Made by a program: the position numbers and the translations under genes
Notes under the pieces: model-generated
Database searches by the model: none
What the model was told of the DNA's origin: nothing
Seen by the model: only the letters and a program-made list of their open reading frames with translations
Source: Chryseobacterium potabilaquae
GTDB lineage: Bacteria > Bacteroidota > Bacteroidia > Flavobacteriales > Weeksellaceae
Direction: 5' to 3'
DNA length: 64,000 nt
NCBI RefSeq assembly: GCF_902728265.1
Contig: NZ_CACVBR010000001.1
Span: 124,001 to 188,000, forward strand
Part shown: positions 40,357-59,511 of the stretch, in pieces
How the letters are laid out: every line of letters begins with the position of its first letter
Numbering within the stretch: position 1 is the first letter of the stretch

Positions 40357-40400
40357 ATTTTAAACAAAACTATTTGACATTTTAAACAAAATTATTTGAT
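40357..40400. promoter_or_regulatory. Tandem 22-bp direct repeat, probable AraC-type operator
   Basis: Two abutting 22-base units (40357-40378, 40379-40400) agree at 20 of 22 positions: ATTTTAAACAAAA, then C or T, then TATTTGA, then C or T. A period of about two helical turns puts both on one DNA face. The second copy ends 11 bases before the -7 box, where a -33 element would be. This matches how AraC-family activators bind, and such a gene lies just downstream. Confidence 0.55.
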
Positions 40401-40411
40401 TTCATCCACAA

Positions 40412-40442: not shown

Positions 40443-41450
40443 ATGAAACAGAATCATTTACAAAAACCTATTAACTCAGGTTTTAATTCTCAATCAACAG
40501 CTCAAGACGTGATCAAAGGCATTGATCTTTCAGGAAAAACCATCATTGTAACTGGAGGATATGCAGGAATCGGATTGGAAACAACAAAAGTTCTTTCTCA
40601 GGCAGGTGCCAAACTGATCATTCCGGCACGAGATCCAAAAAAAGCAAAGAAAAATCTTTCCGGAATTGAAAATGTCCTCATTGAAGAAATGGATTTAATT
40701 GATCCTCATTCAATTAATCGTTTTACTGAAAAATTTCTTGCTAGAGGAATGAAATTAGACTTATTAATTAATAATGCAGGAATTATGTGGGTCCCCTTAA
40801 AAAGAGACAGTCGAGGAATTGAATCACAATTAGCTACCAATTATTTGGGACAATTCCATCTTACCTCCAATCTGTGGCCGGCTCTTAAAAAAGCTCATGC
40901 TGCAAGGGTCATTAACGTTTCATCTTATGGACACCAAATGTCACCGTTTAATTTTGAAGATCCTAATTTTGAACATAGGGAATATCAAACCTTATTAGCC
41001 TATGGGCAATCGAAAACAGCCAATAATTTATTCACCGTTGCATTAGACGAAAGAGCAAAAAAATTCAATGTAAGAGCCTATTCATTACATCCAGGCTCTG
41101 TCTATGGGACCGATTTGGGAAGGGAAGAGCCAATTGATCTTTATATTCAAATGGGAACTCATGATAAAAACGGTCAGATAAAGCCTGAAGTAAAAGCGAA
41201 ATTAAAAACTATTCCACAAGGTGCCGCCACAACAATTTGGTGTGCTACGAGCCCTCTTCTTGAAAATATCGGAGGTGTGTATTGTGAAAATAGTGATATT
41301 GCAGAAATTGATCATGGACAAATAGAACATACCTATGATGATCCATCCACCATCAGAGGAGTTCAACCCTATTCTATCGATCGAGAAAACGCTAAACGTT
41401 TATGGAAACTCAGTGAAGAATTAATTGGGATATCATTTAATGTAGAATAA
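40443..41450 (+). CDS. Short-chain dehydrogenase/reductase
   Basis: A 335-aa NAD(P)-dependent oxidoreductase. The Rossmann motif TGGYAGIG is at 37-44, NNAGIMW near 113, the catalytic serine in INVSSYG and the YGQSK pair at Y187/K191. The length and the C-terminal extension resemble the retinol-dehydrogenase/oxidoreductase-like SDRs. An arginine after the second strand (IIPARD) favours NADPH. The substrate is unknown. It is likely controlled by the AraC protein encoded 39 bases downstream through the tandem repeat upstream. Confidence 0.88.
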   Translation: MKQNHLQKPINSGFNSQSTAQDVIKGIDLSGKTIIVTGGYAGIGLETTKVLSQAGAKLIIPARDPKKAKKNLSGIENVLIEEMDLIDPHSINRFTEKFLARGMKLDLLINNAGIMWVPLKRDSRGIESQLATNYLGQFHLTSNLWPALKKAHAARVINVSSYGHQMSPFNFEDPNFEHREYQTLLAYGQSKTANNLFTVALDERAKKFNVRAYSLHPGSVYGTDLGREEPIDLYIQMGTHDKNGQIKPEVKAKLKTIPQGAATTIWCATSPLLENIGGVYCENSDIAEIDHGQIEHTYDDPSTIRGVQPYSIDRENAKRLWKLSEELIGISFNVE

Positions 41451-44176: not shown

Positions 44177-44899
44177 ATGGAATGGTTTGAATCTTGGTTT
44201 GATACCCCTTATTATCATTTGCTTTATAGTAACAGAGACTATACAGAGGCAGAAAACTTTATCACTAAACTTACTTCTGAGCTACAACTTCCACCCTCAT
44301 CCAAGATTATCGATTTGGCATGTGGTAAAGGAAGACATTCTGTTTTTCTAAATAAATTGGGATACGATGTATTAGGATTAGATCTCTCAAGACAAAGTAT
44401 TGAGTATGATAAACAATTTGAAAATCAAACTCTTATTTTTGATGTTCATGATATGAGAAATCCTATCGATACAGATCCTATTGATGCTGTTTTCAATTTG
44501 TTTACAAGTTTTGGATATTTTGATGATGAAAATGATGATAAAAAAGTTTTCCAATCCGTATACGATGCTCTAAAACCTGGAGGATACTTTGTACTAGACT
44601 ATCTTAATGAAGAATATGTGAGAAAAAATATTACTTCTGAAACTATTATTACTCGTGAAGGGATAGATTTTCAAATCACCAAAAAAATTGAAGGAAGACA
44701 TATCATCAAAGATATCCGTTTCAATGCGGAAGGAAAATCTTTCCACTTCTTTGAAAAAGTAAAACTTCACACCCTAAATGCCATCCAGTCTTACGCAACA
44801 GAATGTGGATTTGAAAGACTAAAAATTTGGGGAGACTATCAGTTAAATGATTTTAATGAAACTTCTTCTCGTTGCATCAATTTATTTAAGAAAAAATAA
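44177..44899 (+). CDS. Class I SAM-dependent methyltransferase
   Basis: A 240-aa soluble methyltransferase. Motif I is IDLACGKGRHSVFLNKLGYD (about 44-63) with the acidic ribose-binding residue in GLDLS, motif II/III around FDVHDMRNP and LKPGGYFVLDYLNEEYV. Family matches are to the general Methyltransf_25 type with no known substrate. Its stop TAA shares one base with the ATG of the ZIP gene, so the two are translationally coupled. A link to metal physiology is possible but not shown. Confidence 0.85.
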   Translation: MEWFESWFDTPYYHLLYSNRDYTEAENFITKLTSELQLPPSSKIIDLACGKGRHSVFLNKLGYDVLGLDLSRQSIEYDKQFENQTLIFDVHDMRNPIDTDPIDAVFNLFTSFGYFDDENDDKKVFQSVYDALKPGGYFVLDYLNEEYVRKNITSETIITREGIDFQITKKIEGRHIIKDIRFNAEGKSFHFFEKVKLHTLNAIQSYATECGFERLKIWGDYQLNDFNETSSRCINLFKKK

Positions 44900-45627
44900 T
44901 GATTACAGTACTATTACTGATATTTAGCGTCATTGCGGGAGTTCTCCTTGGAAAATATTTCGGAAAAAAAGAAAAATTAGCCAAAAACTTATTGATTTTA
45001 AGTGCCGGTTTTTTGATCACCATTTGTTTGAATGAAGTATTCCCTCAAGTTTATACGTCAGAAATAAGTCATAATTTAGGAATTTTTGTTATTGCAGGAG
45101 TTCTTTTGCAAATGATTCTTGAAGCGCTTACAAAAGGTTTTGAGCATGGCCATTTTCATCATCATAATGAACATAATATTCTGCCGGTAGCTTTAATGGT
45201 AGGTTTATTTATTCATGCATTCATTGAAGGAATTCCTTTAGCCAGTGAAGAACATACGTTTTCTCCTTACCTTTTAGGAATTGTATTTCATAACATTCCT
45301 ATCTCTTTCATTTTAGGAGCGTTTTTATTCAATCGACAAGAAGGACACAAAACACCTTCCTATCCTTCATTACTAATTATTGCATTATTTGCTTTAGCGT
45401 CACCAATGGGTATGTTATTAGGAAATTATTTTGATCCCAATCTGCAGCCCTATTTCTTAGCTATTGTAGGAGGTATCTTTTTGCATATTTCCTCAGTAAT
45501 TATATTTGAAAGTAATAAAAATCATAATATTGATTGGATTAAAATAGGATTGGTTATTTTGGGAGTTTCTTTAGCATTAATTATGCATTTGTTCCATTAT
45601 CATCCTACAGGTACTCATCTTCATTAG
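44899..45627 (+). CDS. ZIP family metal transporter
   Basis: The 242-aa protein has eight predicted membrane segments. The metal path is marked by HAFIEGIPLA (helix IV) and FHNIPISFILG (helix V), and a histidine-rich cytoplasmic loop HGHFHHHNEH lies between helices III and IV, as in zinc or iron ZIPs. Start ATG overlaps the previous stop by one base. A weak 7-bp hairpin without a T run follows. Zinc is the most likely substrate by family. Confidence 0.9.
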   Translation: MITVLLLIFSVIAGVLLGKYFGKKEKLAKNLLILSAGFLITICLNEVFPQVYTSEISHNLGIFVIAGVLLQMILEALTKGFEHGHFHHHNEHNILPVALMVGLFIHAFIEGIPLASEEHTFSPYLLGIVFHNIPISFILGAFLFNRQEGHKTPSYPSLLIIALFALASPMGMLLGNYFDPNLQPYFLAIVGGIFLHISSVIIFESNKNHNIDWIKIGLVILGVSLALIMHLFHYHPTGTHLH

Positions 45628-45876
45628 ACTTAATTTCAACTTAATAGAAACTACTCTATATCTTAAAACTAATCGTGTTTACGATTAAGTACAATTTTTA
45701 AAGCCATTAAGAAACCAAAGGTTTTGATTTCCGTTTTAGACAAAATTCAGAAAACAAATATTCTTGTATTCAGATCTTGAAAACAAAAAGGCTATATTTT
45801 GTTTTTCTCACCTATTGAAAGTAAAAATGTTTATTTACAATTTTCAAAAAAACATTTGAGTTCATTTTTCTACAAA

Positions 45877-45937
45877 ATATTGTAATCAAGATATTTTGAT
45901 TTCCATTTTCGAAATCAAAATATCTTGATTACAATAT
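45877..45937. repeat. Perfect 27-bp inverted repeat with 7-base loop
   Basis: Arms 45877-45903 and 45911-45937 are exact reverse complements; the loop is CATTTTC. No T run follows on either strand, so it is not a standard terminator. It is centred about 75 bases upstream of the fic -7 box. Confidence 0.85.
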
Positions 45938-45982
45938 CTACTTAATTTCGGAAATCAAATGACGCTGTATACTTTTTTTATA

Positions 45983-45990
45983 TATTTTTG
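45983..45990 (+). promoter_or_regulatory. -7 box of the fic gene
   Basis: TATTTTTG matches TAnnTTTG, 17 bases before the ATG. The position expected for -33 carries GGAAATCAAATG, a half-copy of the palindrome arm, rather than TTG. Confidence 0.5.
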
Positions 45991-46007
45991 TAAACAAATA
46001 AAATGAA

Positions 46008-47123
46008 ATGGAGTTTAATTTAGATAATTCTGTAAATTATCATTACGATCAATTTCCACCCAATAATATTAATTATGATTTTTTTATACAAGAGTTAATC
46101 AGTGCAACAGATACTTTAGCTCGATTTGACCAAATGATTAAAAACTTACATAATAGCGAATTATTGTTAGCGCCTCTTCGAAATCAGGAAGCAGTTTTAT
46201 CTTCTAGAATAGAAGGAACAATAAGTACAATAGATGAAATTTTACAATATGAAGCAGATAATGAAGGGGGACTTTCAGAAAATGCAAGAGCAGATGTAAT
46301 AGAAACAATTTTATACCAAAGAGCTTTAAAAAATGCCCAATTGGCTTTAGAAGAGGGATATAATTTTTCGCTTAGTTTCATCAAACAGATGCATCAGCAA
46401 TTATTATTTTCGGGAAGAGGAGCAACAAAGGCACCTGGAGAATTTAAAAAAGAACAAAACTTTCTAGCAGATCGTTCTGCTAAAAAGATCCAATTTATCC
46501 CTATAAGTCCCGAAAAACTAAATGATGGTCTATCCGAACTAGTAAATTATATAGAAAACGATTCTTCCCCTTCATTGATAAAAACTGGTATAGCCCACAT
46601 TGAATTTGAAGCATTACACCCTTTTCAGGACGGTAATGGAAGAATTGGGAGAATGATCATAACACTTTTATTATGGAAATCCGGCGTCCTATCACAGCCC
46701 CATTTTTATATCAGCGGCTATTTCGAAGAACATAAAGAGGAATACATAGAAGCCATGAGAAATGTATCCAAAAATAATGATTGGAACACATGGATAAAGT
46801 TCTTCCTCACCGCAGTACAAAAACAAGCCACTAAAAATTTGGAAATTGCAGAACGCATTAAAAATTTGTATGAAGAAATGAAAATAACATTCACTGACTT
46901 ACTTTCTTCTAAATGGAGTGTTGTCATTCTTGACTTTATTTTTACCAACCCTGTTTTTAGGAATAATAAACTCGTTAGTACTACACAAATTCCTGCTGCT
47001 ACCGCAACGGTAGTGATTAAAAAATTAATAGACAGAGAATATTTAGTGCAAAAAGAGGCCGCCTCAGGAAGGAGACCAGCACTTTATTCGTTTGAACCAC
47101 TAATGAAGTTAGTAAGAGTATAA
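46008..47123 (+). CDS. Fic family protein (AMPylase-type) with inhibitory motif and C-terminal winged helix
   Basis: The 371-aa protein has a Fic_N region whose helix carries SSRIEGT (65-71), the [S/T]xxxE[G/N] inhibitory motif that blocks ATP binding through E69 (class II Fic). The core active site HPFQDGNGRIGR is at 204-215 and intact, so it should transfer AMP (or another nucleotide part) to a target when relieved. Residues about 305-365 form a winged helix (STTQIPAATATVVIKKLIDR), which suggests DNA binding. No separate antitoxin gene is adjacent. Targets are unknown; autoregulation through the upstream palindrome is plausible. Confidence 0.9.
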   Translation: MEFNLDNSVNYHYDQFPPNNINYDFFIQELISATDTLARFDQMIKNLHNSELLLAPLRNQEAVLSSRIEGTISTIDEILQYEADNEGGLSENARADVIETILYQRALKNAQLALEEGYNFSLSFIKQMHQQLLFSGRGATKAPGEFKKEQNFLADRSAKKIQFIPISPEKLNDGLSELVNYIENDSSPSLIKTGIAHIEFEALHPFQDGNGRIGRMIITLLLWKSGVLSQPHFYISGYFEEHKEEYIEAMRNVSKNNDWNTWIKFFLTAVQKQATKNLEIAERIKNLYEEMKITFTDLLSSKWSVVILDFIFTNPVFRNNKLVSTTQIPAATATVVIKKLIDREYLVQKEAASGRRPALYSFEPLMKLVRV

Positions 47124-47274
47124 ATAAAATTACTAATCTAGCTCTAAAAGATAGATTATCATAATTTTATTTTGAATTTCTGAAAGGCAGTATTCCTGCT
47201 AAATGAATATATTTGATCAATCAATAATCATAGATATAACAATCCTGTTTTTAATTGAAAACTAAAAAAAAACA

Positions 47275-47337: not shown

Positions 47338-48792
47338 TTAAAATTTCCAACCCAATGTAATAAAGAAATTATTAAAAGTATTTTTCACATCAGATACTGC
47401 GTAGCTTTCATTCACTACATCAAAACTACCTGAGCTATATCCAGTAGCGAAGTATTGTGTAGGATTACCATTATCTACAATAACTTTTCCATATAAAAAC
47501 GGATTATTATATGTTGAACTGATATTCTGGTAAGAGGCATCAATATAAAAACCTCCAAAATCATATCCTAAACCTAATCCAAAAGTATTTCTTTGTCCTA
47601 ATGTCCAGTTATTATAATTACTAGACCCTACTGTTCCATTATTTGCGTAAGCATTTACAGACCCTGAATCAAATGGACTCGTAGCATAAGAATATCCTCC
47701 TCTTAATCTGAAACCTTGGATTCTATACTCTGCTCCTACTCTTACTTCAGAAAGGTTTTTATAATTATCCTTAAAGAAACCATTTAATTCTCTATCAACA
47801 TCTGCATCCTCACTGTATTTAGGTTTAGTAAGTCCCAATGTATAATCCACATTTAAAGCAAAGTTTTTATTGGGCACAAATGCTCCACTGAATGTTGCTT
47901 TCATAGGAGATCTAAAATTGATGCTTTCACCAAAAACATCAGAAACCATAGAGCTCTGACTATTTAATCCATATTCATTATACAGTCTATCAATTCTCCA
48001 CCAAGTAGGTGTTTCAAGAGTTGCTCCCAATCTAAACTCCTTACTTACTTTTCCAATCACACCAAAGGAAGCCGAAAATCCATTAGATTTTTCAGTATAT
48101 GGTGTATATTGTTTATCATAAGAACTCACTGAATTATCCAAATCCAATCCAAAAGCGGCCGTATCATGCTGTTCTACATCAGCATAATGAAAGTTTAAAC
48201 CGGCTCCTAAATAAAGAAAATTTTCATAGTTGGCTCCTACCCCAATATTCATTTTAGATTGAGTTCCATATCTATTATACGCATGTCCCAAATAGGTTAG
48301 ATTGCCTGTAACCGGGTTATTATTAGTATCTATTAAGCTTTTTGAAATAACTATATTTCCATTTCCGGGAGATTCTACATAGTTTTCAATAGACTGATTA
48401 GAAAAGTTTACCCCTACATTCAGAAACTTCCATCCACTATCGGACATCAATTGAAAAGCAGCAACGCCTCCTACATTTCCAAGATCAACCCTATTAATAT
48501 TATAATTAATAGAAGAACCCGCTAAAGAGCTTCTATTTTTATTATTGGTAATAGATAACGTCCCTGAAACATCACCGGAAATGGCAACTCCTATACCCGC
48601 TGGGTTTGTCAATAAAGAACTAGCGTCTCCACCTAAGGCTCCATTAGAACCTGCCATAGCATTAAACTTGGAAGAACCTGTCATTGGTGTATTGGAATAT
48701 ACATCAATGGAGTTCCTTAACACCGATATATCTTGAGCCTGAGCAAAAAATGCTGCAGAAACACTCATTAATACTAAAGATTTTTTTAACAT
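47338..48792 (-). CDS. FadL/OmpP1-type outer membrane transport protein
   Basis: A 484-aa beta-barrel with a signal peptide (SVSAAFFAQA before QDIS). The early NAMAGSNGALGGDASSLLTN with NPAGIG is the N-terminal hatch signature of the FadL/OmpP1/TodX family, and many alternating hydrophobic strands follow, ending in FFITLGWKF with the aromatic C-terminus of outer membrane barrels. It likely admits hydrophobic compounds such as fatty acids. The lipoprotein gene ends 29 bases upstream, so the two form an operon. Confidence 0.88.
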   Translation of the reverse strand: MLKKSLVLMSVSAAFFAQAQDISVLRNSIDVYSNTPMTGSSKFNAMAGSNGALGGDASSLLTNPAGIGVAISGDVSGTLSITNNKNRSSLAGSSINYNINRVDLGNVGGVAAFQLMSDSGWKFLNVGVNFSNQSIENYVESPGNGNIVISKSLIDTNNNPVTGNLTYLGHAYNRYGTQSKMNIGVGANYENFLYLGAGLNFHYADVEQHDTAAFGLDLDNSVSSYDKQYTPYTEKSNGFSASFGVIGKVSKEFRLGATLETPTWWRIDRLYNEYGLNSQSSMVSDVFGESINFRSPMKATFSGAFVPNKNFALNVDYTLGLTKPKYSEDADVDRELNGFFKDNYKNLSEVRVGAEYRIQGFRLRGGYSYATSPFDSGSVNAYANNGTVGSSNYNNWTLGQRNTFGLGLGYDFGGFYIDASYQNISSTYNNPFLYGKVIVDNGNPTQYFATGYSSGSFDVVNESYAVSDVKNTFNNFFITLGWKF

Positions 48793-59380: not shown

Positions 59381-59462
59381 TTTGTAAAGATTGTGCTATA
59401 CTAAAAAATATGTAATACAATTTAATCTCCTACTAACCTATCATCAAAAAATTAAATAAAAA

Positions 59463-59482
59463 AACCTTCTGAGAAGAAGGTT
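59463..59482 (-). terminator. Terminator after the DedA gene
   Basis: AACCTTCT and AGAAGGTT form an 8-bp stem with a GAGA loop. A and T runs on both sides make it able to act in either direction. It lies 30 bases after the dedA stop. Confidence 0.85.
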
Positions 59483-59511
59483 TTTTTATTTAATTTTTAT
59501 TATTTCTTTTT

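What the first reader, a model, noticed from the sequence alone, without database searches (positions are those of the whole stretch)
45722..45990. 27-bp perfect palindrome and satellite half-sites upstream of fic
A perfect 27-bp inverted repeat, a second TTTTGATTTCC motif about 170 bases upstream, and a half-copy over the -33 position form an ordered array before a Fic gene. The Fic protein has its own winged helix. No T tract, so it is not a terminator. This may be an autoregulatory operator array, or a cruciform or MITE-like element.
Basis: partly seen in the sequence, partly recalled or inferred. Interest (0 to 1): 0.6.

Follow-up and report, generated by a model that had tools for sequence, protein, structure and literature searches.

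The report
Operator lattice before a defence-like fic gene
The perfect palindrome is two neighbouring copies of a control site in a regularly spaced array that sits in front of a toxin-like Fic gene in many distantly related bacteria, and through which the Fic protein most likely switches its own gene off.

Summary
In detail: a 27-nt perfect inverted repeat (45877-45903 / 45911-45937, 7-nt loop), one locus in the genome, no + strand T tract. Each arm is one 24-bp palindromic operator (TGwAwwCAA-N6-TTGwwTwCA). Upstream of relatives of this fic gene the operator recurs on a rigid lattice, starting near -58, -98, -127, -167, -196, -236, -265 from the ATG (alternating 40 and 29 bp). With held-out models 23 of 31 regions show it; 69 of 73 neighbour spacings are 29, 30, 40 or 70 bp. 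A lone half-site lies another 40 bp downstream, over the -7 box. The 'second motif' and 'half-copy' are further lattice positions. More distant Fic relatives (31-40% identity) carry other words at like spacings (23 of 36; control spacings 1 and 2 of 36). The gene is a class II Fic with C-terminal winged helix, resembling the anti-phage protein SoFic; array plus fic form an insertion here. Most likely: cooperative negative autoregulation, as shown for CccR, but through a multi-site lattice that six searches of an open-access library did not show in print. Binding is untested.

The parts
   Evidence: 11.3 bits with the window in training, below 9 when held out; 40 bp from the next site
45749..45772 (+). 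operator at -259, AGAAAACAAATATTCTTGTATTCA
   Evidence: 17.7 bits; 16.1 held out
45778..45801 (+). degenerate lattice position -230 (left half TGAAAACAA)
   Evidence: 4.7 bits, 29 bp after the -259 site; placed by spacing
45816..45839 (+). weak operator at -192
   Evidence: 10.7 bits, 7 of 9 dyad matches; below 9 when held out; 4 bp off the relatives' -196
45841..45864 (+). degenerate lattice position -167 (right half TTGAGTTC)
   Evidence: 1.5 bits; placed by spacing only
45877..45937 (.). 27-nt perfect inverted repeat with 7-nt loop = operators -127 and -98 as exact inverted copies
45881..45904 (+). operator at -127, TGTAATCAAGATATTTTGATTTCC
   Evidence: 20.8 bits; 20.2 held out
45910..45933 (+). 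operator at -98, CGAAATCAAAATATCTTGATTACA
   Evidence: 19.6 bits; 18.8 held out
   Evidence: 9.4 bits, below 9 when held out; its position is the one kept in relatives
45983..45990 (+). TATTTTTG, match to the Bacteroidota -7 box TAnnTTTG (consensus recalled)
   Evidence: TAnnTTTG starts at -22 to -26 in 14 of 31 loci
45989..45997 (+). lone promoter-proximal half-site TGTAAACAA, sharing TG with the -7 box
   Evidence: 39 bp after the -58 site here; at +40 the best of 26 offsets in 17 of 20 loci that have a proximal site, the window not among the 17
46008..47123 (+). fic: 371 aa, Fic_N + Fic, inhibitory motif SSRIEG 65-70, HPFQDGNGRIGR 204-215, C-terminal winged helix (recognition helix about 328-342, wing about 346-362); SoFic-like
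45628..47262 (.). approximate extra DNA relative to genus relatives, in which the ZIP gene (44899-45627) is followed directly by the outer-membrane gene (47338-48792, minus strand)
   Evidence: right-hand homology resumes between 47211 and 47274 in 15 of 16 alignments, left edge not sharply defined

Best explanation
The element is the autoregulatory operator array of a horizontally moving, SoFic-like class II Fic gene. Fic, through its C-terminal winged helix, binds 9-bp half-sites (TGwAwwCAA). Two of them in inverted orientation with 6 bp between make a 24-bp operator; operators stand 29 or 40 bp apart, which suggests that neighbouring Fic dimers touch and fill the array cooperatively. The site at -58 covers the -33 region and the lone half-site at about -19 covers the -7 box and start, so filling the array shuts off fic and keeps a toxic AMPylase scarce. 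Steps shown: operators, lattice, conservation, linkage to fic, overlap with predicted promoter elements. Steps inferred: that Fic itself is the ligand, cooperativity, repression, and relief during phage infection. The perfect 27-bp hairpin is a secondary product: two neighbouring operators made exact inverted copies, probably by template-switch correction, not the functional shape.
For: Held-out motif models find at least 2 operators in 23 of 31 upstream regions, all 23 with a lattice step; spacings 29 (26), 30 (6), 40 (31), 70 (6), other (4). With one model: 109 sites in 9213 bp upstream, 0 in 21,700 bp of coding, 0 in 8886 bp just downstream of fic, 4 in 15,627 bp beyond, 3 in 10,500 bp further upstream, shuffles 0.95 on average. 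Lone half-site at +40 ranks first of 26 offsets in 17 of 20 loci that have a proximal site. No Fic match at E <= 1e-60 and no array match in the other 172 genus genomes; in 27 of 29 inspected ones the flanking genes are neighbours. Apart from fic, by which the loci were chosen, no neighbouring ORF family occurs in more than 5 of 28 loci. Operator base 2 (G or A) goes with residue 337 of the recognition helix: Ile in 12 of 12 TG-type loci, in 0 of 15 A-type. Distant Fic relatives keep 30/40/41-bp repeats with other words: 17 of 30 as first drawn, 23 of 36 with six loci I had left out; control spacings 1 and 2 of 36, coding 2 of 36. All 43 aligned proteins match the PADLOC SoFic profile. Model pLDDT 90.7; best fold SoFic 3zcn Z 39.2 over 350 residues (6-371) including the winged helix. 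Precedent: CccR, a Fic-HTH protein, represses its own promoter through AGATAATCAT palindromes near -35/-10 (PMC9755527, passages).
Against: No binding or expression data. 8 of 31 close loci (L046-L049, L051-L053, L056) show no lattice with this motif, 11 of 31 have no proximal site, and 13 of 36 distant loci show no repeat at the tested spacings. In the window itself only 3 sites pass when it is held out; 2 of 8 positions are very degenerate, and its lone half-site is one base off. The recognition-helix correlation needs only about 3 changes on the tree, one origin is not ruled out, and several A-type calls rest on a single site. CccR's reported operator has a 26-bp spacer in convergent orientation, which this lattice does not contain. 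GC-rich alphaproteobacterial relatives show at most weak 70/71-bp repeats (2 of 4).
Confidence: 0.8

Rival explanations
1. The array is bound by a host regulator other than Fic, and fic is merely its target.
For: No binding was tested; the half-sites are AT-rich words that a host factor could know; a related pair of words lies before another gene (40360-40404).
Against: No other cluster in the genome: the degenerate palindrome with up to one mismatch has 40 places (control pattern 16), of which 4 lie here, 7 belong to one dispersed repeat and the rest are scattered. The lattice occurs next to fic in Bacteroidota, in MAGs labelled Rickettsia typhi and Eubacterium, and on a viral contig, with no shared neighbour in more than 5 of 28 loci. 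Operator words drift while spacing stays, as expected if the ligand travels with the array.
Confidence: 0.12
2. The 61-bp hairpin works as such: cruciform, mRNA hairpin, terminator or recombination site.
For: Perfect 27-bp arms, RNA fold z -14; one minus-strand terminator-like call; other long inverted repeats between neighbouring sites in L033 (arm 17, one mismatch, same pair) and L054 (arm 28, two mismatches).
Against: It lies upstream of the predicted start, so it would not be in the fic mRNA. No + strand T tract. In the other relatives the same pair is not a long perfect repeat, and the 6-bp centres of neighbouring sites are mostly unrelated (mean 2.4 of 6 inverted matches over 79 pairs; 6 of 6 only in the window and L033).
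Confidence: 0.05
3. A MITE-like or REP-like mobile repeat that landed before fic.
For: The whole fic segment looks like an insertion.
Against: One locus in the genome and no match in 172 other genus genomes at E <= 1e-6; lattice position is fixed relative to the fic start codon across genera.
Confidence: 0.02

Closest known systems
CccR of Yersinia pseudotuberculosis (PMC9755527; passages read)
   Same: Class II Fic with C-terminal HTH; its loss raises its promoter's activity 3.3-fold; palindromic half-site AGATAATCAT shares TAATCA with TGTAATCAA; sites near -35/-10.
   Different: One footprinted operator with a 26-bp spacer; no multi-site lattice in the passages read; a secreted effector. Its sequence was not fetched.
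SoFic (PDB 3eqx, 3zcn, 9tc4; PADLOC SoFic; PMC12249575 passages read)
   Same: Fold Z 39.2, same domain order, class II motif; SoFic is dimeric and hard to clone because leaky expression is toxic.
   Different: 24-27% identical in structural alignments; NCBIfam SoFic score 160.7, below its 550 cut-off. [quoted passage not shown] A 47-residue antitoxin AS1 is reported downstream of E. coli SoFic; here no ORF above 21 aa lies between fic and the next gene.
CbFic2 (PMC10628234, abstract, outline and passages)
   Same: Class II Fic with winged helix; DNA binding drives dimerisation and changes activity.
   Different: Tested on random DNA; a specific operator is not known from the passages read. 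Its sequence was not fetched.
AbiE-type toxin-antitoxin operators (PMC7319586, start of abstract in search listings only)
   Same: Autoregulation of a phage-defence toxin locus through multiple inverted repeats.
   Different: The antitoxin, not the toxin, is the DNA-binding protein; another protein family.

Membership tests
SoFic anti-phage Fic | Fic_N + Fic domains with HPFx(D/E)GNGRxxR | tested here: met
   PF13784 5.3e-21, PF02661 3e-18; motif 204-215
SoFic anti-phage Fic | class II inhibitory motif (S/T)xxxE(G/N) before the Fic core | tested here: met
   SSRIEG 65-70; motif definition recalled
SoFic anti-phage Fic | C-terminal winged helix in the SoFic position | tested here: met
   model aligned to 3zcn over residues 6-371, Z 39.2, rmsd 2.3, 350 aligned
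SoFic anti-phage Fic | NCBIfam equivalog cut-off NF046030 | tested here: not met
   160.7 bits, cut-off 550; so filed as SoFic-like, not SoFic
SoFic anti-phage Fic | PADLOC SoFic profile | tested here: met
   363 bits, residues 10-369; all 43 of 43 aligned relatives match too; no cut-off given
SoFic anti-phage Fic | protects against phage | not testable with these tools
   needs a plaque assay
CccR-type autoregulated Fic | palindromes over its own promoter | tested here: met
   sites at -58 and about -19 over the predicted -33/-7 elements
CccR-type autoregulated Fic | two 10-bp half-sites with a 26-bp spacer, convergent (starts 36 bp apart) | tested here: not met
   convergent half-sites of one or neighbouring operators start 15, 44 or 55 bp apart here (from the lattice)
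CccR-type autoregulated Fic | Fic binds its operator and represses | not testable with these tools
   needs EMSA and reporter
Intrinsic terminator | U tract after the stem | tested here: not met
   + strand tail CTACTTAA; the - strand tail ACAATATTTT passes the loose pattern scan
MITE/REP element | many dispersed copies | tested here: not met
   one locus

The most novel reading that the evidence does not exclude
The lattice is a DNA scaffold on which Fic dimers assemble into an ordered filament with constant geometry while operator words diverge between lineages. The bound assembly both silences fic and stores AMPylase in an inactive form, so the promoter acts as the sensor: phage takeover of host DNA or transcription strips the array, releasing stored toxin and opening its gene at once.
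Probability: 0.15. Interest if true: 0.8.

Novelty: new variant of a known kind. Interest (0 to 1): 0.62.

Why it matters
How SoFic-type toxins are kept silent and what triggers them is described as open in PMC12249575 (passages). A conserved multi-site operator lattice gives a concrete, testable answer for silencing, supplies exact DNA for binding and structural work, and shows spacing kept while recognition words drift: a natural set of possibly orthogonal repressor-operator pairs. It would also mean that SoFic-like cassettes carry their own safety catch when they move between lineages.

Tried and rejected
Rfam: 19 matches up to E 1, all below their gathering scores, mostly microRNA models that any long hairpin resembles. 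Sigma-70 promoter scan no better than shuffles (5 against 5.3). TTTTGATTTCC alone is weak. blastn in plasmids found 4 Riemerella records only. All 25 phage records with a match are below 60% identity. Neighbour analysis: no shared partner beyond a helicase-like ORF in 5 of 28 loci; the fic ORF itself leaked into the largest cluster and was ignored; four of the loci had only 1.5 kb of flank. In one search four loci (L060, L063, L064, L065) were read on the wrong strand; this was found and mended, and no number is used. VIA-align lists only Foldseek's candidates, so absence of other winged-helix proteins there says nothing.

Rows dropped before counts: of the 27 loci, L055 (start missing), L057, L058 (36 and 32% identical) and L059 (partial) are not among the 31; L049 has only 213 bp upstream. 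The 31 include near pairs (L033/L060, L034/L035, L041/L065, L044/L064, L052/L053), held out together with their kin. Of the 42 distant loci L070-L111, 35 were oriented and 5 near-duplicates dropped, leaving 30. Of the seven left out, L084 is a close relative; the other six (L074, L076, L079, L102, L106, L110) had been left out mainly for shorter flanks, L110 without good reason. L033 was left out of the protein alignment because of its stop codon. Only 30 of 59 ZIP loci were fetched and 16 gaps inspected letter by letter. Literature: open-access library only; preprints and most subscription papers not searched.

Full report
What is there. The window lies in a 4.35-Mb genome. The 27-nt perfect inverted repeat is at 45877-45903 / 45911-45937 with a 7-nt loop, in a 380-bp gap between a ZIP-type transporter gene (44899-45627) and a fic gene (46008-47123). 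It is the longest perfect inverted repeat of the window.

The arm is an operator. One search fetched relatives of the Fic protein from other species. Their upstream regions mostly lack such a hairpin; they share repeated 24-bp palindromes. A symmetric weight matrix fitted to 31 regions reads TGwAwwCAA-N6-TTGwwTwCA; the central bases carry almost no information. Each arm of the hairpin is one such operator (start -127 and -98 from the ATG); because the two neighbours are exact inverted copies including the centre, a perfect hairpin arises. In 79 neighbouring pairs the centres match in inverted sense 2.4 of 6 on average, and 6 of 6 only in the window and in L033, at the same place and with different letters. 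L054 has another long inverted repeat involving a site. I infer recurrent template-switch correction.

The lattice. Sites start near -58, -98, -127, -167, -196, -236 and -265, that is, alternating steps of 40 and 29 bp. Because that matrix was trained on the same data, I rebuilt it for each locus without that locus and its near kin: 100 sites, 23 of 31 loci with two or more, all 23 with a lattice step, and spacings 29 (26), 30 (6), 40 (31), 70 (6), others (4). With the full matrix there are 109 sites in 9213 bp upstream, 3 in 10,500 bp further upstream, 0 in 21,700 bp of coding sequence, 0 in 8886 bp just downstream, 4 in 15,627 bp beyond, and 0.95 on average in shuffles. The eight close loci without a lattice step are L046-L049, L051-L053 and L056; six of the eight are labelled as outside Bacteroidota.

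The window's own array. Held out, three sites pass 9 bits (-259, -127, -98). With the window in training -299, -192 and -58 also pass; -230 and -167 are placed by spacing only. Steps are 40, 29, 38, 25, 40, 29, 40, so two small deletions would explain the upstream drift (inference).

Promoter. TATTTTTG at 45983-45990 matches the Bacteroidota -7 box (recalled consensus TAnnTTTG), found at -22 to -26 in 14 of 31 loci. Twenty of 31 loci have a proximal site of at least 8 bits; one lattice step (40 bp) beyond it lies a single half-site, best of 26 offsets in 17 of the 20, with a mean score of +4.2 at +40 and below -9 at every other offset. The three exceptions are L039, L068 and the window, where the half-site is 39 bp away and shares TG with the -7 box (window position). 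A filled array would thus cover -33, -7 and start. That the array ends in a lone half-site hints that one Fic dimer may bridge the facing-away halves of neighbouring operators; this is conjecture.

Geometry outlives the word. More distant Fic relatives (31-40% identical) have other words at like spacings: in L075 half-sites alternate 15, 25, 16, 25, 15, 25 and also end in a lone half-site at -19; L077 17, 24; L081 16, 24; L094 direct 30, 40, 30, 40. In 30 such loci direct 9-mer repeats (up to one mismatch, at most 4 counted per locus) peak at 41, 30 and 40 bp (40, 32 and 28 against 1 to 3 expected); coding and far-upstream controls are flat. At least three such repeats at 29/30/40/41/70/71 bp occur in 17 of 30, at one set of control spacings in 1 of 30, in coding sequence in 2 of 30. 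With the six loci first left out the figures are 23 of 36, 1 and 2 of 36 for two sets of control spacings, 2 of 36 in coding sequence. Of four GC-rich alphaproteobacterial relatives at 48-56% identity, L144 and L145 show weak 70/71-bp repeats, L143 and L146 none.

What binds. Fic itself is the simplest ligand. It has the class II motif, the Fic motif and a C-terminal winged helix; the model fits SoFic at Z 39.2 over 350 residues, and all 43 aligned relatives match the PADLOC SoFic profile, though the window protein misses the NCBIfam SoFic cut-off. Apart from fic, by which the loci were chosen, no neighbouring ORF family is in more than 5 of 28 loci. No Fic match at E <= 1e-60 and no upstream-DNA match at E <= 1e-6 was found in the other 172 genus genomes. 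Operator base 2 is G in most half-sites of 12 loci and A in most of 15; residue 337 in the recognition helix is Ile in 12 of 12 and in none of the 15. This is suggestive only: about three changes on a tree of the N-terminal part, one origin not excluded.

Mobility. In the sampled genus genomes the ZIP gene is universal (59 of 59). Of 29 other loci fetched there, 27 show the outer-membrane gene beyond it; in 16 inspected gaps the distance between tblastn ends is 69-306 bp, at most 112 in 12 of them, against 1710 bp here. So array plus fic look like a small cassette that came in alone. The Fic tree mixes phyla (some labels are of MAGs), relatives lie in plasmid records and one on a viral contig.

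Mechanism and precedent. CccR, a Fic-HTH protein, represses its own promoter by binding AGATAATCAT palindromes near -35/-10 (PMC9755527, passages). SoFic is toxic on leaky expression and its control is called unresolved (PMC12249575, passages); DNA binding of SoFic was undemonstrated in 2023 (PMC10628234, passages). I therefore commit to cooperative negative autoregulation by Fic (about 0.8). The layout differs from CccR's 26-bp spacer. Six searches of an open-access library listed no paper with such a lattice.

Verdict. A new variant of a known kind: self-repressing Fic-HTH proteins are known; a conserved multi-operator lattice of fixed pitch with drifting words is, as far as I could search, not.

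Noticed in passing
40360-40404: Two near-copies of TTTAAACAAAA(C/T)TATTTGA 21 bp apart upstream of a short-chain dehydrogenase gene (40443-41450) that is followed by an AraC-type regulator gene (41481); the second copy scores 16.3 with the fic operator matrix.
   Followed up: partly
L033 1383-2495: The Cloacibacterium normanense relative has an in-frame stop in fic while its operator lattice is intact.
   Followed up: no
L144, L146, L147: Alphaproteobacterial fic relatives lie near conjugation genes on plasmid records (TraG and TrbB; a type IV DNA-transfer protein; TraE and TraL); L144 shows its own repeats upstream.
   Followed up: partly
L034 4136-6130: A helicase-like ORF directly after fic, with relatives after fic at L035, L036, L044 and L063: possible defence partner or island (the name is my reading of the sequence, no family search was run).
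   Followed up: no
59447-59498: 24-bp perfect inverted repeat with T runs inside the stem, terminator-like.
   Followed up: no
L112: A 63% identical Fic on an IMG/VR contig with three of its operators 70 bp apart.
   Followed up: partly
G000 contigs C1, C59, C63, C74, C84: Seven near-identical copies of a 22-mer GTATTCTA(C/A)TC(..)GTTGCATTC turned up in the palindrome search: a dispersed repeat of the genome, unrelated in position to the fic array.
   Followed up: no
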